The notes under the pieces are model-generated. The model made no database searches and was not told the DNA's origin. It saw nothing but the letters and a program-made list of their open reading frames with translations. A DNA stretch of 64,000 bases from Acidobacteriota bacterium (GTDB lineage: Bacteria; Acidobacteriota; Terriglobia; Bryobacterales; Bryobacteraceae), in assembly GCA_017307505.1 (NCBI GenBank), contig JAFKEE010000032.1, forward strand, positions 1 through 64,000, written 5' to 3'. Below, one piece after another: positions 1-29,994 of the stretch. Each line of letters opens with the position of its first letter. Positions within the stretch are counted from its first letter, which is position 1. The position numbers and the translations under genes were made by a program.

Positions 1-300
1 AGGGCCCGCCGCAACAACCCAAACTCTCCCAGCCAAACCCCTAAAACCCACCACCAACCCAATCCCGGAATCCCCCAACTCTCCCTCCAGCATTCCCCTG
101 GGCACTGCCCAGGGCCCGCCGCAACGACCCAATCCGCTCCAGCCAAACCCCAAAAACTCACCGCCAACCCAATCCCGGAATCCCCCAACTCCCCCTCCAG
201 CATTCCCCTGGGCATCGCCCAGGGCCCGCCGCAACGACCCAAACCGCTCCAGCCAAACCCAAAAAACCCGCAACCAACCCAATCCCGGAACCTCCCAACT
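1..300. repeat. 110-bp tandem array with hairpin (array A)
   Basis: There are two full 110-bp units (1-110, 111-220) and a third truncated at 300, where it runs into the TAG stop (299-301) of the permease gene. Each unit junction holds a 19-nt hairpin with 8-bp arms CCCTGGGC/GCCCAGGG and a 3-nt loop, at 96-114 and 206-224. The first four bases of the window are the end of another copy, so the array continues to the left. The plus strand is strongly C-rich and I see no coding potential. Read on the minus strand, i.e. as the 3' tail of the permease transcript, the hairpin is flanked by GGCGGGCC and GGAATGCTGGAGG, the same flanks as in the array at 15851-16234. Confidence 0.9.
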
Positions 301-1414
301 ACTCCGTCCCGTAGTTAATCTCCAGCCGCCGCACCGCCTTCGACGCAACCCACAGCACCAGCGCGGTCACCGCCAGCAGCCCCAGAATCGCCCCCATCTT
401 CGACGACGGCGACGCCGGATTCAGCAGCAGCTTCAACAACGCGGGCACATCGCTATCCATCGGAGCCGGCACCGGACACAACGACTGCAGGTAGTGGAGC
501 ACGCTCAGCTTCTGCAGCACATCCGGCAGGAACCCGTTGATCCCCTCCCAAGCCAGCAGCACCGCCGCCGGGATAATCGGATTGCGCAGCAGCAGGCCCG
601 CCGCCACGAACACACTTCCATACCCGACACACCCCAGCATCGCCGCCACGCAGTACCAGATCACATGGCTCCAGCCGACACTCTGCCAGTACGCCTGCAT
701 CTCCACCCCGCTGTGCGGCCACAGCATCGCCCAGTACGAAATCATCGCACCGCTCGTGAAGATCACACACGCCGCCGTCAGCCCGGCCAGGTACTTGCCC
801 AGCAACAGCACCTCCCGCCGCGTCGGAAACAGAAACCAGAAGTGCAGCGTCTTGTCCAGCATCTCGCCCCGGAACAGGTTCATGAAGATACCCAGACACC
901 CGAAGAAGATCGCCAGCCGCAGGTAGAAATACTGGAAGACCCCCGCGTAAATCGACCGGTCCTCCTCGAAATTCCCGATCCCCCGAACGTTCTTGCTCTC
1001 CAGCAGCCCGTTCACGAAATGCAGGTTCACCCGCCGCTGCCCGTCGAAGTACACCATATGCCGGTGCCGCTCTAATTCGGGCTGCTCCTCGTAACGCCGC
1101 ACACCATTCGGCCCACGCTCCTCTTTGTACTTGCGCCGGTTCCACTCGTTGTCGTCCGCCGGCTCGCCCAACCTCCTCAGAACCTCGCTATCCTTTTCAC
1201 CCCTCGACACTCCGTCAATGAGCGCGGCCGTCACCTTCGGCCCCGAGGCCCACCGCCGCTGCTGGAACTTCATCTCCAACGCGTGCCCGATGAAAATCAC
1301 AGAAGGGAACAGCGCCAGCAGATACACCCACAAGCCCCGCTTCGAGAAGAAGGCCCGGCGCATCTCGATCCGGGCAATCACCCACGCCTGGCTCGCCCGC
1401 GTCGACATCGTCAT
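299..1414 (-). CDS. ABC-2 type transporter permease (second module)
   Basis: This is a 371-aa membrane protein, probably the membrane subunit of an ABC exporter working with the ATPase at 1590-2522. One helix lies near residues 27-45, followed by a charged extracytoplasmic segment of about 110 residues. Around five more helices fill the C-terminal half, including stretches around YLRLAIFFGCLGIFMNLF and GAILGLLAVTALVLWVA. That arrangement (one TM, large loop, TM bundle) is usual for ABC-2 permeases acting on lipids, peptides or drugs; the substrate is unknown. The start ATG follows a GGGGGTGGGCG tract that is part of a duplicated repeat edge. It is the last gene of the sigma-factor operon and the only one separated by a real gap, which a repeat fills. 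Confidence 0.8.
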   Translation of the reverse strand: MTMSTRASQAWVIARIEMRRAFFSKRGLWVYLLALFPSVIFIGHALEMKFQQRRWASGPKVTAALIDGVSRGEKDSEVLRRLGEPADDNEWNRRKYKEERGPNGVRRYEEQPELERHRHMVYFDGQRRVNLHFVNGLLESKNVRGIGNFEEDRSIYAGVFQYFYLRLAIFFGCLGIFMNLFRGEMLDKTLHFWFLFPTRREVLLLGKYLAGLTAACVIFTSGAMISYWAMLWPHSGVEMQAYWQSVGWSHVIWYCVAAMLGCVGYGSVFVAAGLLLRNPIIPAAVLLAWEGINGFLPDVLQKLSVLHYLQSLCPVPAPMDSDVPALLKLLLNPASPSSKMGAILGLLAVTALVLWVASKAVRRLEINYGTE

Positions 1415-1600
1415 CGCCCACCCCCCATGCCTGTCAGTGGGGCAGACTTCAGTCTGCGCGAGACTTCAGTCTCGCCACCCGTCCAGCCAGCCCCTCCGCT
1501 CATCACCCACCCCCCCATACCTGTTAGTGGGGCAGACTTCAGTCTGCGCGAGACTTCAGTCTCACCACCCGTCCAGCCAGCCCCTCCACTCATCGCCCAC
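1415..1600. repeat. two 90-bp twin-hairpin repeats between operon genes
   Basis: Two nearly identical 90-bp units are present (the start of GGCAGACTTCAGTCTG is at 1441 and again at 1531). Each carries two adjacent perfect hairpins, GCAGACTTCAGTCTGC (1442-1457) and CGAGACTTCAGTCTCG (1459-1474), the latter closed by one base less in the second copy. The motif TCATCGCCCACCCCC occurs at the left edge (1411), in slightly changed form in the middle (about 1500) and at the right edge (1590). It therefore spans the start codon of the downstream permease and the stop codon of the upstream ATPase. This looks like a REP/MITE-type element inserted at an original ATGA gene junction and duplicated. Confidence 0.85.
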
Positions 1601-2522
1601 CCCCAATCAGATACTCGTACAACGCATCCACGTTCTCGTCCGCCGGAATCACGCTTGTCACGTCGTGGCCGCTCAGCGCGATCCTCGACAACGCCCGCGC
1701 AAACTCCTCCCGGTTCCGCGTCAGCACCAGCAGCCCAAGCCGGTCTTCGTTCAGCTTGATCTCCGTCACGTGCTCTTCGTGGAACAGCAGCGCCGCAATC
1801 CGCGAGGCATCCCGGCACCGGATGATGAACTGGCTCGGATGCTCGTGAATCTCTTCCCGCACCCCTCGAATCTCGCCCTCGGCCAGAATGCTGCCGTTCG
1901 CGATCAGCACCACCTGGTCACTGATCACGTCCACCTCCTGCAGCACGTGGCTCGACAGGATCACATGCCGGCCCATCGCCGCGTAGTCGCGGAACAGCGC
2001 AATCGTCTCCGCCCGCACCAGCGGATCCAGGCCGTTCAACGGTTCGTCCAGCACCAGCACTTCCGGCTCATGCGCAATCGCCTGCGCCAGCCGAACCCTC
2101 TGCCGCATGCCCTTCGAATACGCCGCCACCTTGCGGTGCGCCGCCTCCGTCAGACTCACCCGCTTCAGCGCTTCCCAGGCCTTCTGCTCCGCCTCCGCCT
2201 TCGAATACCCGTATAACTCCAGGCCCGTCGTCACAAACTGGAAACCCGAGGCCCACCGCGGAGCCGCATCATACTGCGTCGCATACCCGCTGATCCGCAT
2301 CAGCCTCTCGGGATCCCTCGGCGATAAACCGCGCACCGAAACCGTTCCGCGATCCGGATGGATCAACCCCATCATCAGGTTCATCAGCGTCGTCTTGCCG
2401 GATCCGTTCGGGCCCACCAGGCTCGTCAGCCCCGGCGGAATCCGCAGCGAAACCCGGTTCACGCCCAACACCTCGCCGTAGAACTTCGAAACGTTTTCGA
2501 ATACCACTTCCGGCTGGCTCAC
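1590..2522 (-). CDS. ABC transporter ATP-binding protein (second module)
   Basis: A 310-aa cytoplasmic ATPase subunit. Walker A GPNGSGKTT lies at residues 37-45, the signature appears as a degenerate SKGMRQR, and Walker B is LVLDEPLNGLDP. A D-loop and switch His (LSSHVL) follow, and about 90 residues of C-terminal extension follow the nucleotide-binding fold. I chose the GTG at 2522 because its first base pairs overlap the upstream TGA (GTGA) and a perfect GGAGGTGATC Shine-Dalgarno lies at 2525-2534. The reading frame remains open further upstream, but only inside the preceding gene. It should power the permease at 299-1414; the last codons (GGGR) are encoded by the edge of the repeat that follows. 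Confidence 0.88.
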   Translation of the reverse strand: MSQPEVVFENVSKFYGEVLGVNRVSLRIPPGLTSLVGPNGSGKTTLMNLMMGLIHPDRGTVSVRGLSPRDPERLMRISGYATQYDAAPRWASGFQFVTTGLELYGYSKAEAEQKAWEALKRVSLTEAAHRKVAAYSKGMRQRVRLAQAIAHEPEVLVLDEPLNGLDPLVRAETIALFRDYAAMGRHVILSSHVLQEVDVISDQVVLIANGSILAEGEIRGVREEIHEHPSQFIIRCRDASRIAALLFHEEHVTEIKLNEDRLGLLVLTRNREEFARALSRIALSGHDVTSVIPADENVDALYEYLIGGGR

Positions 2523-3424
2523 TTGATCACCTCCACCGGCCGGAGCTTGCGTTCCAGCACCAGGCCCAACACGCCCACCAGGCACAGCAGCGCAATCCCG
2601 CAGGCCACCGAACCCGGCCCGTCATATCCTTGCGACGATAGACCCACCACCGTGGAATCCACCCCCAGCATCTCCCCCCACACCACATACATCGCCTTCG
2701 CCGGATTCAGCAGCGTGCCCCAGTTCACGCGGAACACCGCGTTCACCATCGTCGCCACACCCGCCGTGATGAAAAAGAAGCCCAGCACCAGGGCGCCCGC
2801 CACGATCTTCCACTTCACATACGCGGAACTCGCCAGCGCCACCAGGCTCACCACCAGAATCCACAACACAAACCCCAGGAACAGCGCCATCGCCAGCCGC
2901 AGATGGTCCATCATCCAGTCCCACCCGGCCATGCCCGACTGAATCCCGAACAGCGTCAGCCCCGGGATCCAGGTCACCGTCGACAACAGCCCCACCAGCA
3001 CCAGCAGCCGTGCCATCACATAGTCTTTCCTCGTCAGGGGCCGGCTCAGATACAGCGGCAACGCATTGTTCGCCAGGTCCGGAGCAATCAGCCCCGGCCC
3101 GGCCAGCGCCGCCAGCAGGACACTGAACACCGATTGCGCATTCATGAAGATCAGGAAGAAGTTCCCGTTGATCTCCATGAACTTCGCCAGCCCGTTGTTG
3201 GAATCCCGGCTGTTCGTCAGGCTCGCGAAAATCTCCAGGTGATTCGACAGGTAGATGAACAGGCCGCACAACAGCGGCCAGAGCAGCGACGCCGTCAGCA
3301 GCAGCACCACCAGCCTCTGCTGGAACAGCCGCTCCCACGAAAACCTCGGCAGCGACAGCAGCCTCGTCCAATGGCCCGTCAAAGGACCCTGATACCGCTG
3401 ATACCCGCGCTTATAGACCGCCAT
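2519..3424 (-). CDS. ABC-2 type transporter permease (first module)
   Basis: A 301-aa integral membrane protein starting MAVYKRGYQRYQGPL. This short basic amphipathic N-terminus is typical of ABC-2 permeases next to a NatA-like ATPase. Helices are visible around residues 40-60, 100-130 (VFSVLLAALAGPGLIAPDL), 140-165, 180-205 and 210-235, with a last one near the C-terminus (CGIALLCLVGVLGLVLE). The motif LSRPLTRKDYVMARLL is the conserved cytoplasmic segment of the family. The start ATG lies inside the end of the upstream ATPase gene (14-nt overlap) and is preceded by AGGAGGTGG, so translation is probably coupled. It pairs with the ATPase at 3411-4394; the substrate is unknown. Confidence 0.85.
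   Translation of the reverse strand: MAVYKRGYQRYQGPLTGHWTRLLSLPRFSWERLFQQRLVVLLLTASLLWPLLCGLFIYLSNHLEIFASLTNSRDSNNGLAKFMEINGNFFLIFMNAQSVFSVLLAALAGPGLIAPDLANNALPLYLSRPLTRKDYVMARLLVLVGLLSTVTWIPGLTLFGIQSGMAGWDWMMDHLRLAMALFLGFVLWILVVSLVALASSAYVKWKIVAGALVLGFFFITAGVATMVNAVFRVNWGTLLNPAKAMYVVWGEMLGVDSTVVGLSSQGYDGPGSVACGIALLCLVGVLGLVLERKLRPVEVIK
2525..2534 (-). promoter_or_regulatory. perfect Shine-Dalgarno deciding the GTG start of the ATPase
   Basis: On the minus strand this reads GGAGGTGATC, fully complementary to the 16S 3' end, followed by two bases and the GTG at 2522. It lies inside the last codons of the permease gene (VEVIK-stop) and decides the GTG start over upstream in-frame codons. Confidence 0.8.
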
Positions 3425-4394
3425 TGGCCGCCACCTCCTGCGGAGCCGTCTCACCCGGCGTTCGCGCCAGGTGCCCCACCGCCCGCAGGAAGATCTCTTC
3501 CAGCGTGTCCCGGCGGTGTGTCAGCTTCCTCACCCGCAATCCCTCGCCCGCCGTCACCTTCCAAACCACCGCAATTTCCACGCCCGGCGGCAATACAATC
3601 CGCCACCGGCCCTGGCCTTCGCCGACGCCATCGGCGCCCACCTTGTGCAGCGCCTCCAGCAGCCCGCTGTCGTCGCCGGAAACTTCCAGCTCCACGAAAA
3701 ATCGGTTCGATTTGCGCTCGGCTTCCAGGTCGGCCTCGTGCACCACCTGCCCGTCCTTCAGGATCACCACCTCGTCGCAAACCTCTTCCACATCGCGCAG
3801 CAGGTGCGAGCACAACACCACGTTCATCCCGTGGTCTTCCTTCATCTCTTTCACCAGCCGCAGCATCCTCTGCCGCGCCGCCGGATCCAGGCCGTTTGTC
3901 GGCTCGTCCAGAATCACCAGCGGCGGACCGTGCACAATCGCCTGCGCCAGCTTCGCCATCTGCTTCATGCCCAGCGAATAGGTCCCCAGGTCGCGGTACC
4001 GCGCCTCGCCCAGGCCCACGTGGAACAACGTCTCGTGCGCCTTCTCCAGCGCCGTCTCCTTCGGCAGTCCCGAAAGCTCGCCCATCTGCCGCAGGAATCG
4101 AACCGCCGTCATGTTCGCGATGAACGAGTCGCTCTCCGGCATATAGCCGATCCGCGAACGCACCTCCCGAACCTGCTTGTGGCAGTCAAACCCCATGATC
4201 TTCGCCGTGCCCGACATCGGCTGGTGAAAGCCCAGCAGCGTCTGGATCAACGTCGACTTCCCTGCCCCGTTTGGTCCCAGCAGCCCGATCGCCCGGCCCT
4301 GGCCCGCAACGCCGAGCCGGCAGGAGATCCCCTTCAGGATCTCCCGCCGGCCTAGCTTCACTCTTAGGTTTTCGAGTTCAATTACTGGCGGCAT
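3411..4394 (-). CDS. ABC transporter ATP-binding protein (first module)
   Basis: A 327-aa ATPase of the NatA/CcmA type. Walker A is GPNGAGKST at residues 40-48, the Q-loop region contains MPESDSF, the signature is SLGMKQMAKLAQAI, and Walker B is LVILDEPTNGLDP. The switch His is in LCSHLL. A C-terminal extension of about 100 residues follows, as in ATPases of two-component exporters. Its start overlaps the 3' end of the anti-sigma-like gene by 17 nt and its stop overlaps the permease start, so all three are likely co-translated. It should energise the permease at 2519-3424. Presence of two complete ATPase/permease pairs suggests either two exporters or one heteromeric complex. Confidence 0.88.
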   Translation of the reverse strand: MPPVIELENLRVKLGRREILKGISCRLGVAGQGRAIGLLGPNGAGKSTLIQTLLGFHQPMSGTAKIMGFDCHKQVREVRSRIGYMPESDSFIANMTAVRFLRQMGELSGLPKETALEKAHETLFHVGLGEARYRDLGTYSLGMKQMAKLAQAIVHGPPLVILDEPTNGLDPAARQRMLRLVKEMKEDHGMNVVLCSHLLRDVEEVCDEVVILKDGQVVHEADLEAERKSNRFFVELEVSGDDSGLLEALHKVGADGVGEGQGRWRIVLPPGVEIAVVWKVTAGEGLRVRKLTHRRDTLEEIFLRAVGHLARTPGETAPQEVAANGGL

Positions 4395-6840
4395 TCTTCT
4401 TTATTTTCCGGTTGAATTTCATTGAGCTGTCATCGGCTGCCGTACCGGCCAGCATACCGTCGAGAATCAGGCTCGTTAATCGAGTACGACTCGCAACGCG
4501 AATTCGTTCCGTTTCTCCGCTCACTACCACCAGAACTGGATCCCGGTCCTTCGCAATTGACTTCAGCGCCTCGCTCGAAACCACTGAGGTCAAGCCTTCC
4601 AGCGCGCCCTTCATGTTCATCCACAGGAAGCCCGAAGGATGCACACCCGCCGCCGAAGGCATATGGCTCAGGAAGGCGGCGGACCGTGTCAGGGCAAAGC
4701 CGCCGTCCCGCGTCTTCAACGCCCGCTGAGCTACCGCCAGGTCCGAACTCATCACCACGTAGCCGCGGTCGTAGGTCCTGTACAGCGTCATCGGTGCCCC
4801 CGCGGCCTTGATCGTCATCCACAGCCGGCCTTCAATCGTCTCCTGGCCCATCACCAGCTTCCGCGCTTGATACTCAGCCGGCAGTTCCGCGTTGTAGGCT
4901 TCCACCAGCTTCGCGATCGTGCCGTCCAGCGTGCCCGGCTTGTATACTTCAGCCGCCGCAATCCAGCCCGGAATCGGGATATTTGCATTCTCGACCGCAA
5001 TCGCGAAGTCCGTGCCCAGTGCCGATGCCAGGTCCTTGCCGATGTCGATCCCCAGCTTACGCTGCGCCTCGTCCAGTTCCGATTTGGTCTTGGCGTCCAG
5101 CGAACCCATCAGGTTCGTGATCTCCGTGAACATCTGGCTCGGCTCCTTCGTCGAACCCGAGAACGCGATCAACGCGTCACTCGTGATGTACTCCGAAGCG
5201 CCCGAAGCACCCGCCGGAGCCAGCCAGGAGGCAATCCCCGCCCTCGCGCCGGCAAAGTTCAACGTGGCTTCGTTCTCTTCCTCACCGTCACTCGACCGCT
5301 GCTCGAAGAACAGCGTCTTCAGGGGCGTGCCCCCCGTCAGAACACTCACCTTCTCGGTCGAGCTCATCTGGAACGACTGAGCGTTCAGGCCCAGCAGCCA
5401 GCCCACGCCGCGCTGGTAGCGCTGCGCGATATCCGCCGCGAACGGGCTCGTCGCGCCCTGCCCTAGTTGCCCCATCGCCCACAACACGTGCGCCTGGCTG
5501 TCGCTGATCAGCACAACCTTATCGTTCACCCCGAAGTTCACGCCTTCCACCATCGGCGCCAGCGCCTTGCGCACCGCCGCCTGCTGGCCGGAGTTCACTT
5601 CCGCGAACACCATCGGAATCTTGTCGCGCTCGCCGCCCGGGCCCTGCGCCAGCGCAAACCCGATCTCCTCACCCAGCAGCGGCATCACCGCCTGCACCTT
5701 GCTGAGCATCTCGCGCACCTTCTCACCGTTGGCCGACTTCCACCATTCGCCGAACGTCGCATTCTGCTCCGCCCGCTGCTCCGCCAGCCGCACCGCCTCG
5801 TCCAGCGTCCCCGAAATATTCGGAGCCGCCCCAAAGGCCACTACATTCGAGGGCAGATAGGCCACCAGCTTGGCCTGCGTCCGCAGCGCCGGCGTCGGCA
5901 GCTCCGCAATCTGCTTCTCCAGCTTCGAAAACTCCGCCAGCAGGGCGAGATACTTCTCCCTCTCCGCGCTCCAGGCCACCGCGTCCTGGGCCGTCACCCC
6001 GCTCAAGGTCGAGGTCGAACCCGCCGCCTCGCCGGGCTTCAGCACTTTGTTGAATTGCGGCTGATTCACCTCCACTGCGCCTTCAACAACGGCCACGACC
6101 GATCCATTCATGCCCGTCGACACCGCGAATACCGTCCCCTTCACAGAGGCCTCGGAATCCCGAGTCCGCACCTTCAGGTGACCGCGCCGCTGCTTCGCCG
6201 CCTGCACAATCACATCGCCGCGATCCAGTTGGACCGTCGCGCCGCTCCAGGCCGCATGCACGAACAACTGGCTCCGCTCGTTCATCTCAACGGTCGAACC
6301 ATCGGCCAGCCGCAGCACCGCGCGCGATCCGGCGCCCGTCCGCACAACCTGTCCTTCACCCAGGGTCGCGCCAGGCCCCATCGCTACATCGGTCAACCCG
6401 TACACCTGGCCGGAGGCCAACTGAACCGTGGCCCGGGCACCCGAGGGCGCCAGCAACCCGTCAATCTTGTCCCGGCCGGTATACAGCGCCACCAGCCCGA
6501 TGCTCGCCGCCAGCGCCCACCGCTGCCACGCCGGCCTCGGCTTCCTTGCCGTCACGGCGGGCAGGACGACCACCTTTCGTTCCCCTTTGGCTTCCGCGTA
6601 CATGCGACGGCAGTCCGCGCACCGCCCCAGGTGGTCATCCATCAACGCCCGCCGGGTCTCAGCCAGCTCCCCTTTCAGGTAAGCCGCGAGATCTCCCTGA
6701 AACTGCATGCAAAGCGGTGGGGCCTGCCCCATCAGCTTGCGCAAAACCCGCTCCTGCGCCGCTGCCATTTCCCCGGTCGGCACAGGCTCGTTCCTCAATG
6801 CTTCCAACGCTTGATCCAGACGCTCTTCCGACATTTCCAT
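4378..6840 (-). CDS. large zinc-finger / FecR-domain transmembrane anti-sigma-like protein
   Basis: An 820-aa protein with several recognisable parts. Residues 40-82 form an anti-sigma zinc finger with the HxxxCxxC motif at H70, C74 and C77. One TM segment lies near 107-121 (WALAASIGLVALYTG). Residues about 160-260 form a FecR-like beta domain (GTVFAVSTGMNGSVVAVVEGAVEV). The remaining ~560 residues, probably extracytoplasmic, resemble DUF3352-type proteins in style but I cannot assign them firmly. The gene starts 7 bp after the ECF sigma gene, preceded by AAGGGGG, so it should hold that sigma factor at the membrane. FecR anti-sigma proteins are normally about 300-400 aa, so the very large sensor part is unusual. 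It overlaps the first ATPase gene by 17 nt. Confidence 0.85.
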   Translation of the reverse strand: MEMSEERLDQALEALRNEPVPTGEMAAAQERVLRKLMGQAPPLCMQFQGDLAAYLKGELAETRRALMDDHLGRCADCRRMYAEAKGERKVVVLPAVTARKPRPAWQRWALAASIGLVALYTGRDKIDGLLAPSGARATVQLASGQVYGLTDVAMGPGATLGEGQVVRTGAGSRAVLRLADGSTVEMNERSQLFVHAAWSGATVQLDRGDVIVQAAKQRRGHLKVRTRDSEASVKGTVFAVSTGMNGSVVAVVEGAVEVNQPQFNKVLKPGEAAGSTSTLSGVTAQDAVAWSAEREKYLALLAEFSKLEKQIAELPTPALRTQAKLVAYLPSNVVAFGAAPNISGTLDEAVRLAEQRAEQNATFGEWWKSANGEKVREMLSKVQAVMPLLGEEIGFALAQGPGGERDKIPMVFAEVNSGQQAAVRKALAPMVEGVNFGVNDKVVLISDSQAHVLWAMGQLGQGATSPFAADIAQRYQRGVGWLLGLNAQSFQMSSTEKVSVLTGGTPLKTLFFEQRSSDGEEENEATLNFAGARAGIASWLAPAGASGASEYITSDALIAFSGSTKEPSQMFTEITNLMGSLDAKTKSELDEAQRKLGIDIGKDLASALGTDFAIAVENANIPIPGWIAAAEVYKPGTLDGTIAKLVEAYNAELPAEYQARKLVMGQETIEGRLWMTIKAAGAPMTLYRTYDRGYVVMSSDLAVAQRALKTRDGGFALTRSAAFLSHMPSAAGVHPSGFLWMNMKGALEGLTSVVSSEALKSIAKDRDPVLVVVSGETERIRVASRTRLTSLILDGMLAGTAADDSSMKFNRKIKKNAASN

Positions 6841-6847
6841 ATCCCCC

Positions 6848-7366: not shown

Positions 7367-7419
7367 ATTCCGGTTGCCTCAGCCACCTATACGGGCCGTC
7401 TTGCGCCTTTATTTCAAAC

Positions 7420-8658: not shown

Positions 8659-8820
8659 CGCGCTCCCGAGAGTAACACAAACTGCCCTCCGGGAACACCC
8701 GCATAACAAACTCGTAACGGCTGCATTCCACTCATTCCAAAGGGCAAATCAAAGAACATCGAGCTGACAACGGCGTGCTGGCCCGGAGTTGGCCGGATGG
8801 CTTCTCATAGCGGAAACGAT
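8659..8820. promoter_or_regulatory. divergent intergenic region with likely promoters
   Basis: 162 bp separate the divergent starts of the membrane regulator (minus) and the FAD oxidoreductase operon (plus). Promoters for both must lie here or just inside the genes. I see no convincing -35/-10 pair or palindrome. Confidence 0.4.
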
Positions 8821-10812
8821 ATGTCTCGCCTCGCGTTTCTGCTGTTGGTGGCCCTGGTTTGCCACGCCCAGGTGGATGTTCTGATCGTAGGAGGAAGCAG
8901 CGCCGGCGTCGGCGCGGCCATCGGAGCGGCCCGGTTGGGCGGTTCCGTGCTCCTTGTCGAGGACACCCCGGTCCTCGGCGGCATGCTCTCGAACGGAATC
9001 TCCAACATCGATTCCTACTCCTACGAATCGCTCAGCGGCGTCTTCGACGAGTTCCGGCAACAGGTTCGAGCCCACTACGGCTATTCGGGGCCGCTTCCTC
9101 CCCACAAACCTTCCCATGTCGATGGACATTCCCTCGCAGCCCATCACGCCGAAGCCGGTGGCCGATGGGAACCCCACGTCGCCGCCCAGATCTTCCGGAC
9201 GATGGCCGCCCGCTACCCCAACCTTCAGATCCGGTATCGGACTAACGCTACAGGTGTAGTGATGGAAGGACGCCGCATCGTGGGCGTCCACTTTGTAGAC
9301 GAGAAGGGCCAGAAGAGCACGGTCCTGGCGAAGGTCGTGGTCGATGCGACCCACGAAGGGGACATCGCCGCCTGGGCCGGAGCGCCCTACCGGGTCGGGC
9401 GGGAAGCCCGTTCCGCCACAGAGCCCCATGCCGGGCAGATCTTCTTTTATAACGCCACCAATGAGATTCTGCCGGGCTCGACCGGGCGGCAGGATCAGGC
9501 CATTCCGTCGTCCGGGTTGCGGCTCTGCATCAAGAAGTACCCCGCCGGGGCGCGCCTGATCCCGCGGCCGGCTGGCTATGATCCGGAGCAGTTTAAGTAC
9601 AGCACAAAGTCTTTGTCTACAGACGTTCCCGAAGGAAAGTTCGAGATGAACGTAAACCCGATCGGGAACGAGATCCAGGAGTTGAACTGGACTTGGCCGG
9701 AGGCTTCCGCCGCCGAGCGCCGAAAACTGTACGAACTGCATAAGAATCGCGCGCTCAGCTATCTCTACTACCTGCAGCACGACCTCGGCCGCACCGACCT
9801 CGGGCTGCCGGACGACGAGTTCGTTGACAACGGCAATCTGCCCTACCGGGTATTTGTACGGGAGGCGCGGCGCATCGAGGGCGAGGTCCTGATGACCGAG
9901 GCCGACATCAACCCCTTCCTGACAGGAAACACCTGGCTTCCGCCCTTTCGCGGCGACAGCATCGCCATCGGAGAGTACCCCATCGATGCCAAGCCGGTGC
10001 GCCCCAAGACGGACTTCACGAAGCCGGATAAGGGCGAGGGTGACTTCTATCTGATCGACGTAACCACTGCGTTTCAGGTGCCTTATGGCGCCATAGTCCC
10101 CAAACAGGTGGAAGGATTGCTGGTGCCGGCGGCCCTCTCCGCGACCCATGTGGCCTTCTCGGCGGTTCGCATGGATCCGACCTGGACAGTGCTCGGTCAG
10201 GCGGCCGGGGTGGCGGCGGCGCTCGCGGCCAAACAACAGGTCAGCCCACGCCAGCTCGCTGTCGGACAGGTGCAAAGCGAACTACTGCGGCAGAAGGCCC
10301 GGCTGGTGTTCTATTGGGACCTGCCGCTGGACCATCCGGCTTTTGAGGCCATTGAAGCGCTGTCCCTGCGCGGGTCGTTCCGCGGCTTCCCGGACCGGAT
10401 GTTCAATCCCGAGGATCCGCTCACACGGGCGCAGGCTGCTGCACTGATTGTAAAGCACTTCGGGCTGTGGCCCAGCGTCAGCGGACACCATTTCCAGGAC
10501 GTCCCCTACGCGCACTGGGCGTTCCGGGCTGTGGAGACCCTGCACGACCAGCAGGCTCTCGAACTGCTGGGCTTGCCACCCCTCTGGCCCCAGGCCGGTC
10601 CCTATCGCGGCCCGGTCCACGCCGGTTTCGCCAAACCGGCTACTGCTCGTCAATTCCTTCCGGATCAACCAATTACTTCACAAGAGTGGAGAAATTTGTT
10701 GAACCGGTTCCAGACCAATTCGCTACCTCCACTGCCACCCGGCCCAGTCTCGCGGGCGAGGGCGGCGCTGGATCTCTATTCACTGCCCGTTCAAGAGGGA
10801 GTCCATCCATAA
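8821..10812 (+). CDS. exported FAD-dependent oxidoreductase with C-terminal SLH-like region
   Basis: 663 aa from the ATG at 8821, which gives a clean signal peptide (MSRLAFLLLVALVCHAQ); an ATG eight codons upstream is in frame. The Rossmann FAD-binding motif VDVLIVGGSSAGVGAAIGAA follows the signal, and the body matches the FAD_oxidored family (RIEGEVLMTEADINP, AVRMDPTWTVLGQAAGVAAA). After the oxidoreductase, about residues 525-600 resemble S-layer homology repeats: RGFPDRMFNPEDPLTRAQAA and DVPYAHWAFRAVETL. SLH modules normally bind cell-wall polymers, so the enzyme may be attached outside the cytoplasm. The stop TAA shares its last base with the ATG of the Oar-like receptor (TAATG), so the two are coupled. 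Substrate unknown. Confidence 0.83.
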   Translation: MSRLAFLLLVALVCHAQVDVLIVGGSSAGVGAAIGAARLGGSVLLVEDTPVLGGMLSNGISNIDSYSYESLSGVFDEFRQQVRAHYGYSGPLPPHKPSHVDGHSLAAHHAEAGGRWEPHVAAQIFRTMAARYPNLQIRYRTNATGVVMEGRRIVGVHFVDEKGQKSTVLAKVVVDATHEGDIAAWAGAPYRVGREARSATEPHAGQIFFYNATNEILPGSTGRQDQAIPSSGLRLCIKKYPAGARLIPRPAGYDPEQFKYSTKSLSTDVPEGKFEMNVNPIGNEIQELNWTWPEASAAERRKLYELHKNRALSYLYYLQHDLGRTDLGLPDDEFVDNGNLPYRVFVREARRIEGEVLMTEADINPFLTGNTWLPPFRGDSIAIGEYPIDAKPVRPKTDFTKPDKGEGDFYLIDVTTAFQVPYGAIVPKQVEGLLVPAALSATHVAFSAVRMDPTWTVLGQAAGVAAALAAKQQVSPRQLAVGQVQSELLRQKARLVFYWDLPLDHPAFEAIEALSLRGSFRGFPDRMFNPEDPLTRAQAAALIVKHFGLWPSVSGHHFQDVPYAHWAFRAVETLHDQQALELLGLPPLWPQAGPYRGPVHAGFAKPATARQFLPDQPITSQEWRNLLNRFQTNSLPPLPPGPVSRARAALDLYSLPVQEGVHP

Positions 10813-13800
10813 TGCGCTTCAGGACACTGTCCGTCACGGCGTTGCTCGCCTTCTCGCTGGCCCTGTCGGCCCTGGCACAGAACGCCCAAATTACTGGAAT
10901 GGTAAAGGATCCGACGGATGCGCCCGTCGCCGGAGCCACCGTCCACATTATCGCTACCGACACCGGCACGTCCCGCGAGGTCACAACCAGCCCGGAGGGG
11001 TACTACACCGCACCACTTTTGCCTCGCGGCCGGTACGAAGTAGTGGTTGAGATGAAGGGCTTCAAAGGCTCAAAAAGCAAAGACTTATTGCTGGAAGAGG
11101 GTCAGTCGTTGAGGCTCGATATCCGGCTGGAGATGGGCCAGGTGAGTGAGACGGTGGAAGTAGTCGCCTCCGCTGGTCTGTTGAGCACGGAGACGACCTC
11201 GGTTTCGACGGTCGTACCGAACCAGCGCGTGGTCGATCTTCCCCTGAGCGGCCGCAACCCCTTGCTTCTGGCCAACTTAGTCCCCGGCGTGCGACCGGTC
11301 GGGTCGTTTGGGGGCATGACGGTTTCCAGCTTTGACGGATCGCGCGTCTCCATCGCCGGCGGCGCTCCGAGCACGAACAACTTCATGGTGGACGGCGTCG
11401 CGGCAGAGAACTTCGCCTCCGGGGGCATCCAGATTACCCTGTCGCCGGACGCCACGGAAGAGTTCCGCGTGATCACGCGCAACCCCAGCGCCGAGTATGG
11501 GCGGACCGGCGGCGGCATTGCCAATTTTGTCAGCAAGGCAGGCACGAACGACTGGCATGGTTCCGCCTTTGAGTTCCTGAGAAACAAGCAGTTGAACGCC
11601 AATAGCTTCTTCAGCAACTACGCCGGGGCGAAACGGGCTTCCTTCGTTTTCAACCAGTACGGCGCCACCCTGGGCGGGCCGGTCCGGAAGGACAGGACGT
11701 TCTTTTTCTTCAACTGGGAAAAGGTGGCCCAGCGCGGCCAGGACCAGACGTTCCGGACAGTTCCGACCGAACTGCAGCGCAAAGGCGACTTCAGCCAGAC
11801 CCTGGATGGAGCGGGGCGACTGGTGGTCGTTTATGATCCGACGACGACGGTTCCGAACCCGGACAAGCCAGGCTCGTACCTGCGTGCCCCGCTTGCCGGC
11901 AATGTGATTCCGGCCAATCGAATCAGCGCGGTAGCGGCCGCAGTCTCATCCTACTACCCAGCCGGCAACACAGCAGGCAACGCCTATACGCGGACGAATA
12001 ACTTCTTCGGCCAGGCCTCGGCGCCGGTAGACAAAGACGTCTATGGAGTCAGGATCGACCACAACTTCAATCAAAGCCGCCGGATCTTCGGGCGCTACAC
12101 GTATGACAAGACGTTCCGGGGTTCTTCGAATTTCTACGACAATGTAGCCGAAACCAATACCAGCGACCTGCCGTTCAAGCGGAACAGCGCTGTTCTCAGC
12201 TACATAGAGACGCTGCGGCCAACCCTGCTGCTGGAGACCCGAGCGGGTGTGAACCGCTACTTCACGCCGAGGGTGACGCGCAGCTACGGCTTCGATGTGA
12301 CCAAGCTCTCGATGAATCCTATCGTCAACAGCCAGATGCAGTTACCGGTCTTTCCGAGCTTCGGCATCGGGGACATGAGCGGACTGGGCGCCGCGGCGGA
12401 CGATCACCTGATCCAGGCCAACGACTCCTATACGGCGGCGGGGTCGGTGACCTGGATCCATTCGGCGCATAACTTCAAATTTGGAACGGAGTTCCGGGCC
12501 TACCGCGCAAACAATAACCAGATGTGCGGCTCGATTCTGTCGCTGGGTTTCAACCGCGGGTTCACGCAGGGGCCGGACCCCAACACGGCGGCCACGAACG
12601 CCGGTTTCGGCTATGCCTCGTTCCTGCTGGGCGACGCCGGGAGCGGCGGCCTAACTCGCTGCCCGACAGTGACTTATCAGGTCCCCTACGGCGCTTTCTA
12701 TGCTCAGGACGACTGGAAGGTGACGCCTCGTCTCACCTTGAACCTGGGCCTGAGGTATGACGTGGAAGGTGCTCTTACTGATCGATTTAACGCTATGTCG
12801 ATGTGGGATCCGACGGCCAGCTATACGAGCGGCGGCATCAACATGACCGGCGGGCTGGTGTATCCCGGCGTGAATGGCCGCGGGCGCGGCAATCGCGAAG
12901 TGTCGTACAAGGACTTCGAGCCACGCCTGGGCCTTTCCTATCAGTTGTTTAAGAAGTCGGTGGTGCGGGCCAGCTACGGCATCCTGCACCTGCCCACGAC
13001 AGGGGTGATTGTGCGGGTGGGCCAGAGCGGCTTCTCGGCCAGTTCAGCCATGGTGACTTCCGTGGATGGCGGCTTTACGCCATCGGGCAACATCGCCAAT
13101 CCATTCCCCGATGGGATCAATCTGCCCACGGGTTCCTCGCAGGGGCTGCTTACGGGCATCGGCACCAGTGTCGGCGGCAACCTGTTGAATCTGCAGCGTG
13201 GATACAGCCAGCAGTGGAACTTCAACGTACAGCAGGAATTGGGCGGCGGGTGGATTGTGGAGCTGGGCTACATGGGCAACCGAGGCGTTTCGCTGCCGGC
13301 CAACAAAGCCTTCCACTACCTGCCCCAGTCGACCCTTTCGCAGGGAACGGCGCTGCAGCAGTTGGTGCCTAACCCCTTTGCTGCCATCGTGAAGACGGGT
13401 CCGCTGGCGCAGGCGAACGTGACCCGGGCCACGCTGTTGAACTATTACCCGCAGTTCAGCGGCGCCAGCGGCCTGGATTCATGGGCCGACTCGATTTACC
13501 ACGCGGCGACGATGAGGCTGGAGAAGCGGTTCTCGCACGGGCTTTCGCTGCTCGCTTCGTACACCTTCTCGAAGCTGATCGACAACAACCTGGGCAATGG
13601 AGCCAACAACTTCGCCGATGGGGGCGACAACGGTGTGCAGAACTGGGACAACCTGCGGGCGGAGCGTGCCGTGTCGACCTCCGACCTGCCGCAACGCCTT
13701 GTGATGACAGCCAGTTACGAGCTGCCGTTCCTCAGGGACTCGAAAGGCATCGCGGGCGCGGTGCTGGGCGGCTGGCAGTTGAACCCGATCGTCACGCTGC

Positions 13801-14204
13801 AAAGCGGCAACGTGATCTCGGTGACGGCCAATGCTCCGGCCTTCGGAGGCAGCCGGCCTGATCTGATTGGGGATCCGTCGGTTAGCAATCCAACCATCGA
13901 CAACTGGTTGAACAAGGCGGCGTTCGCACCCATCCTTCCCTTCACCTATGGGAATGCGCCCCGGAACCTGCCGACAGTGCGGACCGACGGGCTACAGAAC
14001 ATCGACCTTTCGGTACTGAAGAACTTCCGGTTGAAAGAGCGCTACAAGGTGCAGTTTCGGGCGGAGTTCTTTAACCTGACGAATACACCCACATTCGGCA
14101 ATCCGACTGCGAACATCAGTTCGGGTAGCTTTGGGACCATCCGGTCGCTGGCGACGAACACGGGTCCGCGGAACGTCCAACTGGCGCTGAAGTTCCTCTT
14201 CTAG
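10812..14204 (+). CDS. Oar-like TonB-dependent outer-membrane receptor
   Basis: An 1130-aa outer-membrane protein. It starts with a signal peptide (to about residue 22, ALSALAQ), then a carboxypeptidase-regulatory beta-sandwich (QITGMVKDPTDAPVAGATVH). A plug-like domain follows (VVDLPLSGRNPLLLANLVPG, FMVDGVAAENF), and then a long beta-barrel region ending in the aromatic C-terminus ALKFLF expected for BAM-dependent proteins. This domain order is characteristic of the expanded receptor family of Acidobacteria, related to Myxococcus Oar and Bacteroidetes SusC; the ligand is probably a polymer fragment but is not known. The start is fixed by the TAATG overlap with the preceding gene, and its stop lies 2 bp before the next ATG. 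Confidence 0.88.
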   Translation: MRFRTLSVTALLAFSLALSALAQNAQITGMVKDPTDAPVAGATVHIIATDTGTSREVTTSPEGYYTAPLLPRGRYEVVVEMKGFKGSKSKDLLLEEGQSLRLDIRLEMGQVSETVEVVASAGLLSTETTSVSTVVPNQRVVDLPLSGRNPLLLANLVPGVRPVGSFGGMTVSSFDGSRVSIAGGAPSTNNFMVDGVAAENFASGGIQITLSPDATEEFRVITRNPSAEYGRTGGGIANFVSKAGTNDWHGSAFEFLRNKQLNANSFFSNYAGAKRASFVFNQYGATLGGPVRKDRTFFFFNWEKVAQRGQDQTFRTVPTELQRKGDFSQTLDGAGRLVVVYDPTTTVPNPDKPGSYLRAPLAGNVIPANRISAVAAAVSSYYPAGNTAGNAYTRTNNFFGQASAPVDKDVYGVRIDHNFNQSRRIFGRYTYDKTFRGSSNFYDNVAETNTSDLPFKRNSAVLSYIETLRPTLLLETRAGVNRYFTPRVTRSYGFDVTKLSMNPIVNSQMQLPVFPSFGIGDMSGLGAAADDHLIQANDSYTAAGSVTWIHSAHNFKFGTEFRAYRANNNQMCGSILSLGFNRGFTQGPDPNTAATNAGFGYASFLLGDAGSGGLTRCPTVTYQVPYGAFYAQDDWKVTPRLTLNLGLRYDVEGALTDRFNAMSMWDPTASYTSGGINMTGGLVYPGVNGRGRGNREVSYKDFEPRLGLSYQLFKKSVVRASYGILHLPTTGVIVRVGQSGFSASSAMVTSVDGGFTPSGNIANPFPDGINLPTGSSQGLLTGIGTSVGGNLLNLQRGYSQQWNFNVQQELGGGWIVELGYMGNRGVSLPANKAFHYLPQSTLSQGTALQQLVPNPFAAIVKTGPLAQANVTRATLLNYYPQFSGASGLDSWADSIYHAATMRLEKRFSHGLSLLASYTFSKLIDNNLGNGANNFADGGDNGVQNWDNLRAERAVSTSDLPQRLVMTASYELPFLRDSKGIAGAVLGGWQLNPIVTLQSGNVISVTANAPAFGGSRPDLIGDPSVSNPTIDNWLNKAAFAPILPFTYGNAPRNLPTVRTDGLQNIDLSVLKNFRLKERYKVQFRAEFFNLTNTPTFGNPTANISSGSFGTIRSLATNTGPRNVQLALKFLF

Positions 14205-14206
14205 TC

Positions 14207-15808
14207 ATGAAACCGATTTGGTTGACGGAAGCAACAATATTACTTGTCAGTGTCAACTTATTTGGCGCGCCGCCAGCCGTGCAGGATGTGGTGGTTTACG
14301 GTGGGACAGCCGCGGGGGTGACCGCGGCTGTCCAGGCCGCGAGGATGGGTAAGCGGGTGGTGCTGGTCGCCCCGGAGAAGCACGTTGGGGGGATTTCGGT
14401 CGAGGGTTTGGGTGGATCCGATATCGATAATCATGATTTCCGAAACAGTACCGCGGTGGGCGGATTGGCGCTCGAGTTCTATACGAGGGTCGGCCAGAAG
14501 TATGGGAAGCAGAATCCGGTGTGGCGTTTTGAGCCGCATGTGGCCGAGGCGGTGTTCGACGACCTGCTGGAACAAAATCATGTCCCAGTGTTTCGGGGGA
14601 GAAGGCTGAAGGAACCGCTCGCCTCTTCCGTCCTCTGGGCAGCAGAGAAGCAGTTGAAGTCGATTGTGACGGAGACGGGCGAGGTATATTCCGGGCGGCA
14701 GTTCATCGACGCTTCGATCGAAGGCGATCTGTTGTACGCGGCGGGCGTGGAGACGGTGATCGGGCGCGAGGCGAACTCGAAGTATGGGGAGACGAAGAAC
14801 GGGATCCGGGGGGAGAACGACTACCGGCAGTTTGCGGTGCGGGTGGATCCGTATCGTGTGCCGGGTGTGCCGGCGAGCGGGTTGATTGCGACGATCCAGG
14901 ATGAGGAACTGGGGGTGCCGGGGTCGGGTGACGCGCGCGTGCAGGGGTATTGTTTTCGCCTGTGCCTGACGCGGAGGCCGGAGAACCGGCTGGTGATCGG
15001 CAAGCCGGCCCACTATGATCCGGCGCAGTATGAGATCTACCGGCGGTATGTGAAAGCGGGCGGGCAGCTGTTTGTTCCGCAGGAGAACGTGCCGAACGGA
15101 AAGACGGATTTGGGGTCGTGGCACGACCTGTCGGCGAATCTGTATGGGATGAATGCGGCGTATCCGGGCGGGTCGTATGCAGTGCGGGCCCAAGTGTACC
15201 AGCAGCATCTGGAGTTCACGTGGGGGCTGCTGTATTTCCTGGCGCACGATGCCGGGCTGCCGGAGAGTGTGCGGGCGGCGTGGCGGGACTGGGGGTTATG
15301 CCAGGACGAGTTCACGGACAACGGGGGTTGGCCGCGACAGGTCTATGTGCGGGATGCGCGGCGCATGGTGTCTGATTATGTCCTGACGGAGTGGAATACG
15401 CGGCGGGTGAACGCTCCGCTGGTGGAGGATGCGGTGGCGGTGGCGTACTGGCCGCCGGATCTTCATCATGCGCGGCGGATTGTGAAGGACGGGGCGGCCT
15501 ACAACGAAGGGTTTGTGTTTGGCGGGCAGGAGTGGGGGCCGTTCAGTATTCCGTACCGGGCGTTGACTCCGAGGCGGGGGGAGGCTCGGAATTTGCTGGC
15601 GGCGTCGTGTCCGTCTTCGTCGCATGTGGCGTACGGGGCGGTGCGGTTGGAATGGACGTTTATGGCGCTGGGGCAGGCGGCGGGGGCGGCGGCGGCACTG
15701 GCAGATGGGGCTGTGCAGGATGTGCGGTATCCGAAGTTGCGGAGGGTATTGGTGGAGGCTGGGGCGGTGGTGTCGGTGCAGGGGGTGACGGGGTTGGCGG
15801 GGCGGTGA
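14207..15808 (+). CDS. exported FAD-dependent oxidoreductase (FAD_oxidored family)
   Basis: A 533-aa protein with an N-terminal signal sequence (about 20 residues, ending near LFGAPPA) and the dinucleotide-binding motif DVVVYGGTAAGVTAAVQAA. Later family landmarks are present: IDASIEGDLLYAAGVETVIG, RQVYVRDARRMVSDYVLTE and WTFMALGQAAGAAAAL. It shares the fold and several motifs with the enzyme at 8821 but has no SLH-like tail. It begins 2 bp after the receptor stop, so the three genes form one operon, probably for uptake and oxidation of one class of substrate at the cell surface or in the periplasm. Its last ~80 codons are unusually G-rich, like the adjacent repeat. Confidence 0.83.
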   Translation: MKPIWLTEATILLVSVNLFGAPPAVQDVVVYGGTAAGVTAAVQAARMGKRVVLVAPEKHVGGISVEGLGGSDIDNHDFRNSTAVGGLALEFYTRVGQKYGKQNPVWRFEPHVAEAVFDDLLEQNHVPVFRGRRLKEPLASSVLWAAEKQLKSIVTETGEVYSGRQFIDASIEGDLLYAAGVETVIGREANSKYGETKNGIRGENDYRQFAVRVDPYRVPGVPASGLIATIQDEELGVPGSGDARVQGYCFRLCLTRRPENRLVIGKPAHYDPAQYEIYRRYVKAGGQLFVPQENVPNGKTDLGSWHDLSANLYGMNAAYPGGSYAVRAQVYQQHLEFTWGLLYFLAHDAGLPESVRAAWRDWGLCQDEFTDNGGWPRQVYVRDARRMVSDYVLTEWNTRRVNAPLVEDAVAVAYWPPDLHHARRIVKDGAAYNEGFVFGGQEWGPFSIPYRALTPRRGEARNLLAASCPSSSHVAYGAVRLEWTFMALGQAAGAAAALADGAVQDVRYPKLRRVLVEAGAVVSVQGVTGLAGR

Positions 15809-15850
15809 GGTTTGGGGCCGCTTCCGCGTGCTGGGCGGCCTATAGATGGG

Positions 15851-16234
15851 CTTCGGCGAGGATTATTCGGTTGGTGGTGAGGACCGTTGGGATTGGGGCC
15901 GGCCACCGGCAATGCCGGTGGGAATGCTGGGGGAGCAGGGTTCGGCGTTGGGAGGTTGGGTTCTTGGATGGGGTTGTGGCGGTGGTGCACGTTGGTTGGC
16001 GTCGGCGAGGATTCATCAGTTGGTGGTGACGGGCGTTGGAATTGGGGCCGGCCACCGGCAATGCCGGTGGGAATGCTGGGGGAGCAGGGTTCGGCGTTGG
16101 GAGGTTGGGTTTTTGGATGGGGTCGTGGTGGTGGTGCACGTTGGTTGGCTTCGGTGAGGATTCATCAGTTGGTGGTGAGGGTCGTTGGGATTGGGGCGGG
16201 CCACCGGCAATGCCGGTGGGAATGCTGGAGGAGT
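15851..16234. repeat. 149-bp tandem array with hairpin (array B)
   Basis: Units of 149 bp begin at about 15851, 16000 and 16149; the third breaks off after about 85 bp. Each contains the 19-nt hairpin CCACCGGCAATGCCGGTGG (8-bp arms, loop AAT) at 15903-15921, 16052-16070 and 16201-16219, followed by GAATGCTGG. In the third unit the flanks are GGCGGGCC before and GGAATGCTGGAGG after, identical to those of array A read on its minus strand. The stem sequence differs from array A but remains fully paired. The array starts about 40 bp after the stop of the FAD oxidoreductase. Confidence 0.88.
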
Positions 16235-16295
16235 CGAGTGCTGGGTTGGGACAGCGGCTGGGGTTGGGATGGAGGCTGGGGTTGGTTCCGCTTTG

Positions 16296-16373
16296 GGGGA
16301 CGGTCCGCTCTGCCCACGTCGGCATTCTTCTGGGTTGCAGTCGCTTTGGTTGGGTGCAGAGAGGACCGTCCCC
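16296..16373. repeat. 78-bp inverted repeat (MITE-like hairpin)
   Basis: The arms GGGGACGGTCCGCTCTGC (16296-16313) and GCAGAGAGGACCGTCCCC (16356-16373) are complementary over 18 bp with one mismatch and enclose 42 nt. It lies 55 bp beyond the stop of the propeller gene (minus strand) and could act as its transcript end or be a small dispersed element. No T-tract follows on either strand. Confidence 0.75.
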
Positions 16374-16428
16374 GGGACGCGTTGGAATCGCTTGGGCGCG
16401 GCGTCCCGGTGGCTGTCAATGTTGGTGG

Positions 16429-20187: not shown

Positions 20188-20235
20188 CGGCGCCGCGGCA
20201 GGGCGAAGAGCGCTCTCACATCATTCGAAGAATGC

Positions 20236-21800: not shown

Positions 21801-21821
21801 GCGCTGCCGTCGAGGGTAGGG

Positions 21822-29984: not shown

Positions 29985-29994
29985 AGGTGGAGTG

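What the first reader, a model, noticed from the sequence alone, without database searches (positions are those of the whole stretch)
1..16234. Two 3'-end tandem arrays share a hairpin element whose stem covaries
Array A (1-300, read on the minus strand) and array B (15851-16234, plus strand) have different unit lengths (110 and 149 bp) but a common core: GGCGGGCC, an 8-bp stem with 3-nt loop, then GGAATGCTGGAGG. The stems are CCCTGGGC/GCCCAGGG in A and CCACCGGC/GCCGGTGG in B. Three adjacent base pairs differ with both partners changed, so pairing is kept while flanks stay identical. Each array begins within 0-40 bp of a gene's stop codon and has the same orientation relative to that gene's transcription. 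Compensatory change argues for selection on RNA or ssDNA structure rather than simple repeat drift. Candidates are a transcript-end element, a REP-like transposed hairpin, or a structured non-coding RNA.
Basis: partly seen in the sequence, partly recalled or inferred. Interest (0 to 1): 0.8.

Follow-up and report, generated by a model that had tools for sequence, protein, structure and literature searches.

The report
Mobile DNA hairpins oriented by skew
The two repeat arrays carry a transposon-like DNA hairpin found some 70 to 90 times in each of three related genomes, in places right beside its likely transposase gene, and most copies point the way the surrounding DNA's strand bias points, which hints at where this chromosome is exposed as single strands.

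Summary
The arrays and the covarying hairpin are real. The 53-nt element has 76, 93 and 82 matches in the window's genome and two genomes of its genus; 243 of these form 98 clusters. In 131 flank-anchored copies about 96% of stem cells pair, against 83-90% with arms shuffled; five stem types dominate. At the orthologous sites of arrays A and B a sister genome has elements with another, still paired stem.

The 3'-end interpretation fails: the upstream gene is co-oriented in 39 of 87 clusters. The REP-like reading holds: 7 of 8 close copies of a small HUH, Y----Q transposase (class-3 TnpA_Y1-like) have the element 74-91 bp upstream, antisense; this transposase and high copy number coincide in the same 3 of 41 genomes; 41 of 56 spacers recur in other arrays.

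Unexpected: element strand follows local GC skew in 88 of 98 clusters whatever the gene strand, and in 20 arrays examined the largest origin-like skew step lies a median 8.3 kb behind. Strong local skew also occurs in congeners without the element, so the element probably follows, not makes, it. Mobility, strand exposure and local replication initiation are inferred, not shown.

The parts
1..300 (-). array A, 110-bp units, cut by the contig end
   Evidence: contig C9 starts at window base 1
82..134 (-). element A1 (53 nt); hairpin 96-114, stem CCCTGGGC/GCCCAGGG read on minus
   Evidence: R1 match 63.6 bits
192..244 (-). element A2 (53 nt); hairpin 206-224
   Evidence: R1 match 67 bits
15849..16233 (+). 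array B, 149-bp units
15883..15935 (+). element B1; hairpin 15903-15921, stem CCACCGGC/GCCGGTGG
   Evidence: R1 69.9 bits
16032..16084 (+). element B2; hairpin 16052-16070
   Evidence: R1 72.8 bits
16181..16233 (+). element B3; hairpin 16201-16219
   Evidence: R1 76.3 bits
299..1414 (-). gene whose 3' end touches array A; no Pfam match at E<=1e-5; next gene is an ABC transporter; 4-fold GC skew -0.76 on plus strand
14279..15808 (+). gene whose 3' end precedes array B; FAD dependent oxidoreductase; 4-fold GC skew +0.70
8659..14278 (.). centre of the local GC-skew switch (minus to plus) between A and B
14200..50000 (+). plus-skew domain from about 1.6 kb before array B onwards, decaying to near zero; end placed by eye
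1411..1604 (-). second tandem array (period 90) with CTGAAG-loop hairpins on the minus strand, another hairpin family

Best explanation
The arrays are tandemly amplified copies of a REP-like mobile hairpin, the DNA substrate of a small Y1 HUH transposase resembling class 3 TnpA_Y1 (RAYT-like). Shown: copy number, covariation, position beside the transposase gene, recurrence of element plus spacer in different arrays, some sites shared between species and many not, orientation along local GC skew. Inferred: the transposase recognises the folded single strand by shape and conserved flanks, so the middle of the stem may drift while pairing is kept; it moves the element as single-stranded DNA, which is available mainly on one strand (the lagging-strand template), so copies end up in one orientation relative to local fork direction; arrays then grow in place by slippage or repeated unit insertion. 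The GC-skew switches some 4-14 kb behind the arrays would mark places where forks commonly start or restart; this last step is the weakest.
For: Genome-wide family: 76 matches in the own genome at E<=0.1, 93 and 82 at E<=0.001 in G005 and G006; more than one match in only 3 of 41 genomes; E<=1e-6 in 4 of 200 order genomes, one of them a single hit. A transposase with E<1e-50 occurs in the same 3 of 41 genomes; 7 of its 8 copies have the element 74-91 bp from the start of the match, on the opposite strand. In G005 three tandem transposase copies are framed by elements on both sides, and their reading frame runs into the downstream element. The gene lies beside infB in G000, G005 and G006. H-x-H, W and Y----Q invariant in 10 of 10 aligned. 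Covariation. Other stems at orthologous sites in G006. Spacers recur in 41 of 56 arrays. Orientation follows flanking GC skew in 88 of 98 clusters with 500 bp on each side masked and in 85 of 98 at 4-fold sites, in genes on either strand alike. Skew 14-20 kb upstream is negative in 16 of 18 usable arrays against 43-53% of null positions.
Against: No mobility, cleavage or binding was shown, and no empty site was demonstrated base by base. Only 5 of 98 clusters lie beside the close transposase. The hairpin lacks the GTAG/GGAG foot of classical REPs and the CnGA foot reported for class 3. In G000 and G006 elements lie on one side of the transposase only. Profile match to solved TnpA chains is weak (E 0.13). 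In G006 element strand does not follow replichores drawn from dnaA (11 of 32, p 0.11), so the link between skew and fork direction is an assumption; no DnaA-box enrichment at the steps (0.017 against 0.019 per kb). 10 of 98 clusters lie against the skew. Skew peaks without the element exist.
Confidence: 0.72

Rival explanations
1. Structured RNA or transcript-end element acting in mRNA 3' ends.
For: Arrays A and B follow co-oriented stop codons, also at the orthologous sites in G006; convergent gaps somewhat enriched (26 of 81 against 40 of 211).
Against: Upstream gene co-oriented in 39 of 87; divergent gaps hold 24 of 81 clusters; no Rfam match at gathering score; orientation follows skew in genes of either strand.
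Confidence: 0.06
2. Immobile minisatellites: tandem arrays grown by slippage, stems kept paired by arm-copying template switches, spread only by recombination.
For: Locus-specific unit lengths (137 of 145 intervals between 93 and 284 bp); elements at some orthologous sites; skewed, low-complexity units.
Against: Shared core in 98 clusters with different gene neighbours, unit families spanning up to 15 arrays in three genomes, tight link to a transposase gene.
Confidence: 0.12
3. The arrays cause the skew: a transposase nick at the hairpin starts strand displacement, the displaced element strand is exposed and mutates, giving G-rich element strands that decay downstream.
For: Skew peaks at arrays and decays over tens of kb downstream of array B; after infB the skew is 0.29-0.40 with elements and 0.05-0.13 in G001-G003 without.
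Against: The mosaic exists in G003 without R1 matches (sd of gene skew 0.304), at element-free peaks such as C9 100-104 kb, and infB has 4-fold skew of -0.86 to -0.89 in G004, G007 and G008, which have no R1 match there; the step lies kilobases behind the array.
Confidence: 0.08
4. The skew mosaic is a record of inversions of segments once carrying ordinary replichore skew, with elements inserted strand-specifically before the inversions.
For: A rearrangement between window and G006 has one breakpoint beside a G006 array; skew of infB differs in sign between congeners.
Against: Inversion predicts even amplitude and equally sharp rises and falls; grid positions with steps above 0.5 outnumber those below -0.5 by 17 to 5, 20 to 3 and 16 to 0 (neighbouring positions overlap), and amplitude reaches 0.7 near arrays A and B and decays.
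Confidence: 0.2

Closest known systems
Class 3 TnpA_Y1 and its atypical secondary structures (Quentin et al. 2018, PMC6006769; passages seen)
   Same: Occurs in Acidobacteria, short protein, W and Y----Q signature, flanking hairpins that reach high copy number (about 600 in Solibacter usitatus in that paper).
   Different: HUH reads THLH or THIH in this clade against NHVH; hairpin foot is not CnGA; elements stand in one-directional clusters; orientation along local GC skew is not mentioned in the passages seen.
Classical REP/BIME with RAYT (TnpA_REP)
   Same: Short intergenic palindromes in many copies, a cognate Y1 transposase gene beside them, kept at one locus in three species.
   Different: No GTAG/GGAG foot next to the stem, direct not inverted arrangement, Y----Q instead of the YI..NP-type motifs listed.
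IS200/IS605 insertion sequences (IS608, ISDra2)
   Same: Y1 HUH enzyme; in G005 hairpins on the same strand on both sides of the gene; strand-biased placement resembles lagging-strand insertion reported for them (passages).
   Different: Gene not multicopy as a unit except in one tandem array; sequence similarity weak; tnpB was not searched for.
TIRYT/TIRtrons of Acidobacteria (PMC3733652; passages seen)
   Same: Tyrosine transposase genes, some of Acidobacteria, with own flanking repeat families.
   Different: Those repeats are described as terminal inverted repeats; these are hairpins in direct orientation.
Cyanobacteria with irregular GC skew and multiple origins (PMC7198777; abstract and passages seen)
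   Same: Irregular chromosome skew.
   Different: There multiple origins are reported from experiments; here only composition is known.

Membership tests
Class 3 TnpA_Y1 system | HUH motif and catalytic Y with Y----Q | tested here: met
   H69, H71, Y129, Q134 invariant in 10 of 10
Class 3 TnpA_Y1 system | W[TA] motif | tested here: met
   W108 invariant; next residue A in 9 of 10, G in one
Class 3 TnpA_Y1 system | belongs to the published class-3 sequence cluster | not testable with these tools
   the published profile is not in the libraries; members closest to the published motifs (L032, L104) are 28 and 35% identical to the G000 protein
Class 3 TnpA_Y1 system | flanking hairpins with 5' foot CnGA | tested here: not met
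   the four bases before the stem are mostly CGGG or ATGG on one strand, ATTC or ATTA on the other; foot description
Class 3 TnpA_Y1 system | hairpins present in high copy number | tested here: met
   76, 93, 82 matches
Classical GTAG REP/RAYT | GTAG or GGAG foot at one end of the palindrome | tested here: not met
   a GGAG stands 10 nt beyond the stem in many copies, not adjacent
Classical GTAG REP/RAYT | elements flank a Y1 transposase gene | tested here: met
   7 of 8 close copies have one upstream; both sides only in the G005 array
Classical GTAG REP/RAYT | inverted pairs (BIME/REPIN) | tested here: not met
   opposite-strand neighbours within about 1.5 kb in 2 places among 98 clusters (read from the listing)
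IS200/IS605 insertion sequence | hairpins at both ends on one strand with tnpA between | tested here: inconclusive
   so in the G005 tandem array, upstream only in G000 and G006
IS200/IS605 insertion sequence | insertion into lagging-strand template | tested here: inconclusive
   strand follows local GC skew 88 of 98 but not dnaA-based replichores in G006, 11 of 32
Known RNA family | Rfam match at gathering score | tested here: not met
   0 matches in the window
Substrate of a Y1 enzyme | cleavage and strand transfer by the enzyme | not testable with these tools
   needs protein biochemistry

The most novel reading that the evidence does not exclude
This genus has many local zones where replication starts or restarts without an evident DnaA-box cluster, leaving N-shaped domains of extreme strand bias tens of kb wide, and a single-strand transposase has written strand-specific hairpin arrays on the shoulders of these zones, so that the arrays are natural arrows pointing along local fork movement.
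Probability: 0.2. Interest if true: 0.88.

Novelty: new variant of a known kind. Interest (0 to 1): 0.64.

Why it matters
It links a little-studied transposase class to a defined hairpin with a handful of compensatory stem types, a ready test of structure-specific recognition. More surprising, the element's strand is predicted by local GC skew and not by genes, beside origin-like skew switches that are strong and local (4-fold skew up to 0.76 in the window). Either single-strand transposition tracks an unknown pattern of replication initiation in these bacteria, or some other strand-specific process does; marker-frequency sequencing of one culture would tell.

Tried and rejected
Gene 3'-end bias: tested and rejected. 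Replichore as the explanation for strand: 11 of 32 in G006 with dnaA taken as origin. Transcription as the cause of skew: gene strand correlates 0.06 and 0.03 with 4-fold skew, neighbouring genes 0.87 and 0.71. C-to-T deamination alone: at 4-fold sites A and T barely change while C falls to 0.17 and G rises to 0.70, so that simple reading is not enough. DnaA-like boxes at the steps: no enrichment. Array-mediated inversion: I first took both breakpoints to lie at arrays; one search shows that at most one does, so it is not claimed. Spacers as transposase remnants in general: 5 of 56 spacers match the transposase regions, 3 of them from the arrays beside it; clear for the G005 array only. Relatives of the gene before array B in genome contigs: 17 loci, best 68% identical; not examined further. 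TGAA-loop hairpins along the skew: G000 12 of 12 (loci chosen around arrays), G005 4 of 4, G006 1 of 3, G003 0 of 1, G016 2 of 2; too few.

Rows dropped and limits: of 76, 93 and 82 matches I entered 71, 91 and 81 (243) in the cluster script, leaving out the weakest and partial ones. Alignment A1 used 33 of 35 short-hairpin candidates (one with a shortened and one with a lengthened hairpin left out, besides one false match). One search counts distinct copies only and its 131 include a few evident chance matches. Gene calls come from a simple codon-usage caller of my own, not a standard program. One search took the longest open frame as infB, which was wrong for G004 and G008; its gene-skew values are replaced. 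This correction weakens the rival that arrays cause the skew; I lowered its odds from 0.10 to 0.08.
Full report
OBSERVATION. Both arrays are as described. The window is bases 1-64000 of contig C9 of a 9.39-Mb, 75-contig genome, so array A is cut by the assembly. A blastn search of array B in the own genome gave 26 places, two of them array B itself. I collected copies by their flanks with no demand on pairing, aligned 33 and counted pairs: 96.6% of cells paired (shuffled mean 83.7%), 40 cells with a change on both sides (14.2), covariation score 0.391 against 0.161 in shuffles and at most 0.122 in slid alignments; the number of pairs with such a change (4) and of pair types (7) are not above shuffles. 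The model R1 built from them finds 76 matches in the own genome at E<=0.1.

DISTRIBUTION. Among 41 genomes, 7 have a match at E<=0.01, but more than one match only in G000, G005 and G006, all of one genus; full lists give 93 in G005 and 82 in G006 at E<=0.001. Among 200 genomes drawn from the order 4 have a match at E<=1e-6, the fourth a single one (that run scored 29 candidates per genome). I grouped 243 of these matches into 98 clusters, 41 single and 57 with two or more copies; 137 of 145 intervals between neighbours in a cluster are 93-284 bp.

COVARIATION IN THREE GENOMES. With flank anchors only, 40, 43 and 48 distinct copies (131) in G000, G006 and G005 pair in 0.966, 0.959 and 0.964 of cells; with arms dealt anew 0.832, 0.901 and 0.856 on average, never reaching the observed value in 500 shuffles each. 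109 copies pair fully; their 5' arms are CCCCCGGC (49), CCCTGGGC (32), CCTCCGGC (15), CCCCCAGC (8), CCACCGGC (3) and two singletons. In G006, directly after the orthologs of the two stop codons (proteins 87% and 90% identical), there are three elements at the A site and one at the B site, all with stem CCCCCGGC/GCCGGGGG. Pairing is thus kept while sequence differs at an orthologous site. This need not mean selection: template switching at palindromes can copy one arm into the other (established knowledge, not tested).

NOT A GENE-END ELEMENT. With my own gene caller, 92 of 98 clusters overlap no called gene other than ones lying inside the cluster. Where the upstream gene is known (87), it is co-oriented in 39 and anti-oriented in 48. 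Of 81 with both neighbours 26 lie in convergent, 24 in divergent and 31 in tandem gaps; other gaps of 100 bp or more in the same loci are 40, 59 and 112 of 211. Arrays A and B belong to the 17 of 98 clusters whose first element lies within 100 bp after a co-oriented stop.

THE TRANSPOSASE. Y1_Tnp (PF01797) occurs in 27 of 41 genomes at E<=0.001, so the domain alone says little. One clade is specific: a protein of 154-184 aa with E<1e-50 occurs in 8 copies, in G000 (1), G005 (5) and G006 (2), and at that level in none of the other 38 genomes. In 7 of the 8 an element ends or starts 74-91 bp from the start of the match, on the opposite strand (coordinates; sequences). The eighth, G005 C3:2372496, 53% identical, is framed by another tandem hairpin, and a 45% identical gene in G004 by a third one: each transposase lineage may have its own hairpin. 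In G005 three gene copies and ten elements form one array, with element-gene-element spacing of 630-634 bp and element-element spacing of 178-182 bp; gene-less units retain the 3' end of the gene, so there they look like deletion derivatives. The gene sits between infB and a PRK07208-family gene in G006 and at the corresponding place in G005, and beside infB in G000. Four of the eight matches run over one or two stop codons; read to the first stop they are 154-161 aa, so the stops may be natural ends.

FAMILY. The alignment has H-x-H, W and Y----Q invariant in 10 of 10. Passages of Quentin et al. 2018 (PMC6006769) give class 3 TnpA_Y1 as rare, found principally in Planctomycetes, Acidobacteria and Proteobacteria, with Y----Q, atypical hairpins with a CnGA foot, and about 600 copies in Solibacter usitatus. 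The protein signature fits; the foot does not. I therefore call it class-3-like and not a member. NCBIfam REP_Tyr_transpos and transpos_IS200 match all 10 members at E<=0.1, for the first member far below their cut-offs; solved transposase chains (best 2xo6) match at E 0.13 only.

SPREAD AND TURNOVER. 41 of 56 interior spacers resemble the spacer of another array; the largest family links 15 arrays of all three genomes, and that of array A seven (one of them, C60, probably the other side of array A itself). So element plus spacer seems to spread as a unit. By flanking genes, 20 of 32 G006 clusters have a counterpart next to an array in G000 and 7 of 32 in G005, three in both (one shared gene of the two nearest on a side was enough and paralogs are not excluded, so these are upper estimates).

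ORIENTATION AND SKEW. In G006 I noticed that element strand follows the sign of the surrounding GC skew. With 500 bp on either side masked, 88 of 98 clusters agree (29 of 32, 31 of 34, 28 of 32 in G000, G005, G006). At 4-fold sites of flanking genes 85 of 98 agree (binomial p 4e-14), with weighted skew 0.241 in genes on the element's strand and 0.293 in genes on the other. In the window the 4-fold skew is -0.76 beside A, passes zero at 9-14 kb and is +0.70 beside B, then fades over tens of kb. For 20 arrays of G006 with flanks up to 20 kb, mean skew in element sense climbs from -0.12 at -20 kb through zero near -8 kb to +0.17 at the array, and is +0.14 to +0.07 downstream. Skew at -14 to -20 kb is negative in 16 of 18 usable arrays; at null positions it is negative in 43-53%, depending on the local-skew cut, and none of 20,000 bootstrap sets was as low (null positions come from three stretches and are autocorrelated). 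The largest upward step lies 4.4-14.2 kb upstream, median 8.3 kb, with heights from 0.20 to 0.92 (steps closer than 1.5 kb could not be seen, and two pairs of arrays share one upstream segment). So arrays point outward from origin-like switches, sometimes in divergent pairs (window A/B; G006 575/590 and 6218/6235 kb).

WHAT THE SKEW IS. It is a mosaic of local domains, independent of gene strand. Sharp rises outnumber sharp falls on a 500-bp grid in C9, G006 and G003 (17 to 5, 20 to 3, 16 to 0 positions beyond 0.5). G003, which has no R1 match, has the mosaic too (sd 0.304), G016 of another genus hardly (0.139) (one 200-kb stretch each). At infB the 4-fold skew is 0.18-0.22 in the three genomes with elements there, 0.12-0.26 in G001-G003 and -0.86 to -0.89 in G004, G007 and G008, none of which has an R1 match there. 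Hence extreme skew does not need the element, and the element is probably a follower of the asymmetry. The sequence after infB is more skewed with elements (0.29-0.40) than in G001-G003 (0.05-0.13; -0.16 to -0.20 in G004, G007, G008), so a local contribution of the arrays is not excluded. A dnaA C-terminal domain is present in all five genomes tested. Some cyanobacteria with irregular skew replicate from multiple origins (PMC7198777, abstract and passages). Seven searches of the open-access library (listings) showed me no title or abstract start describing such a link between REP-like elements and local skew; the papers listed were mostly not opened.

VERDICT. A REP-like mobile hairpin family with a class-3-like transposase: well supported. 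Strand-specific placement along local skew: measured. Lagging-strand insertion near local initiation zones: my preferred but unproven mechanism.

Noticed in passing
window 1411-1604: Second tandem array (period 90) with hairpins GCAGACTGAAGTCTGC and GCGAGACTGAAGTCTCGC on the minus strand; a CTGAAG-loop hairpin also stands beside a G004 transposase.
   Followed up: partly
L030 (G000:C61) 3526-4221 minus: A RAYT-like gene (NCBIfam REP_Tyr_transpos 74.4 bits, cut-off 80) lies about 430 bp from R1 elements at the contig end; chance or a second user is open.
   Followed up: partly
C9 100-104 kb (L251, L252): Skew peak of -0.71 at 4-fold sites without an R1 match or a tandem array found nearby.
   Followed up: partly
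G000 contig ends (C9, C13, C35, C39, C60, C61, C63): Several contigs of this draft genome end in or next to the arrays, so copy number is probably underestimated.
   Followed up: no
L098 (G005:C3 2370000-2376000): Transposase paralog framed on both sides by another tandem hairpin family, CCCCAAACCGAAGGTTGGGG.
   Followed up: partly
window 18399-27978 against G006 562-572 kb: This segment lies on the other side of the A-B block in G006: a rearrangement with one breakpoint beside a G006 array.
   Followed up: partly
L312, L314, L315 (infB of G004, G008, G007): infB has a 4-fold skew of -0.86 to -0.89 in these genomes against +0.12 to +0.26 in six congeners, so skew peaks differ in place or sign within the genus.
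   Followed up: partly
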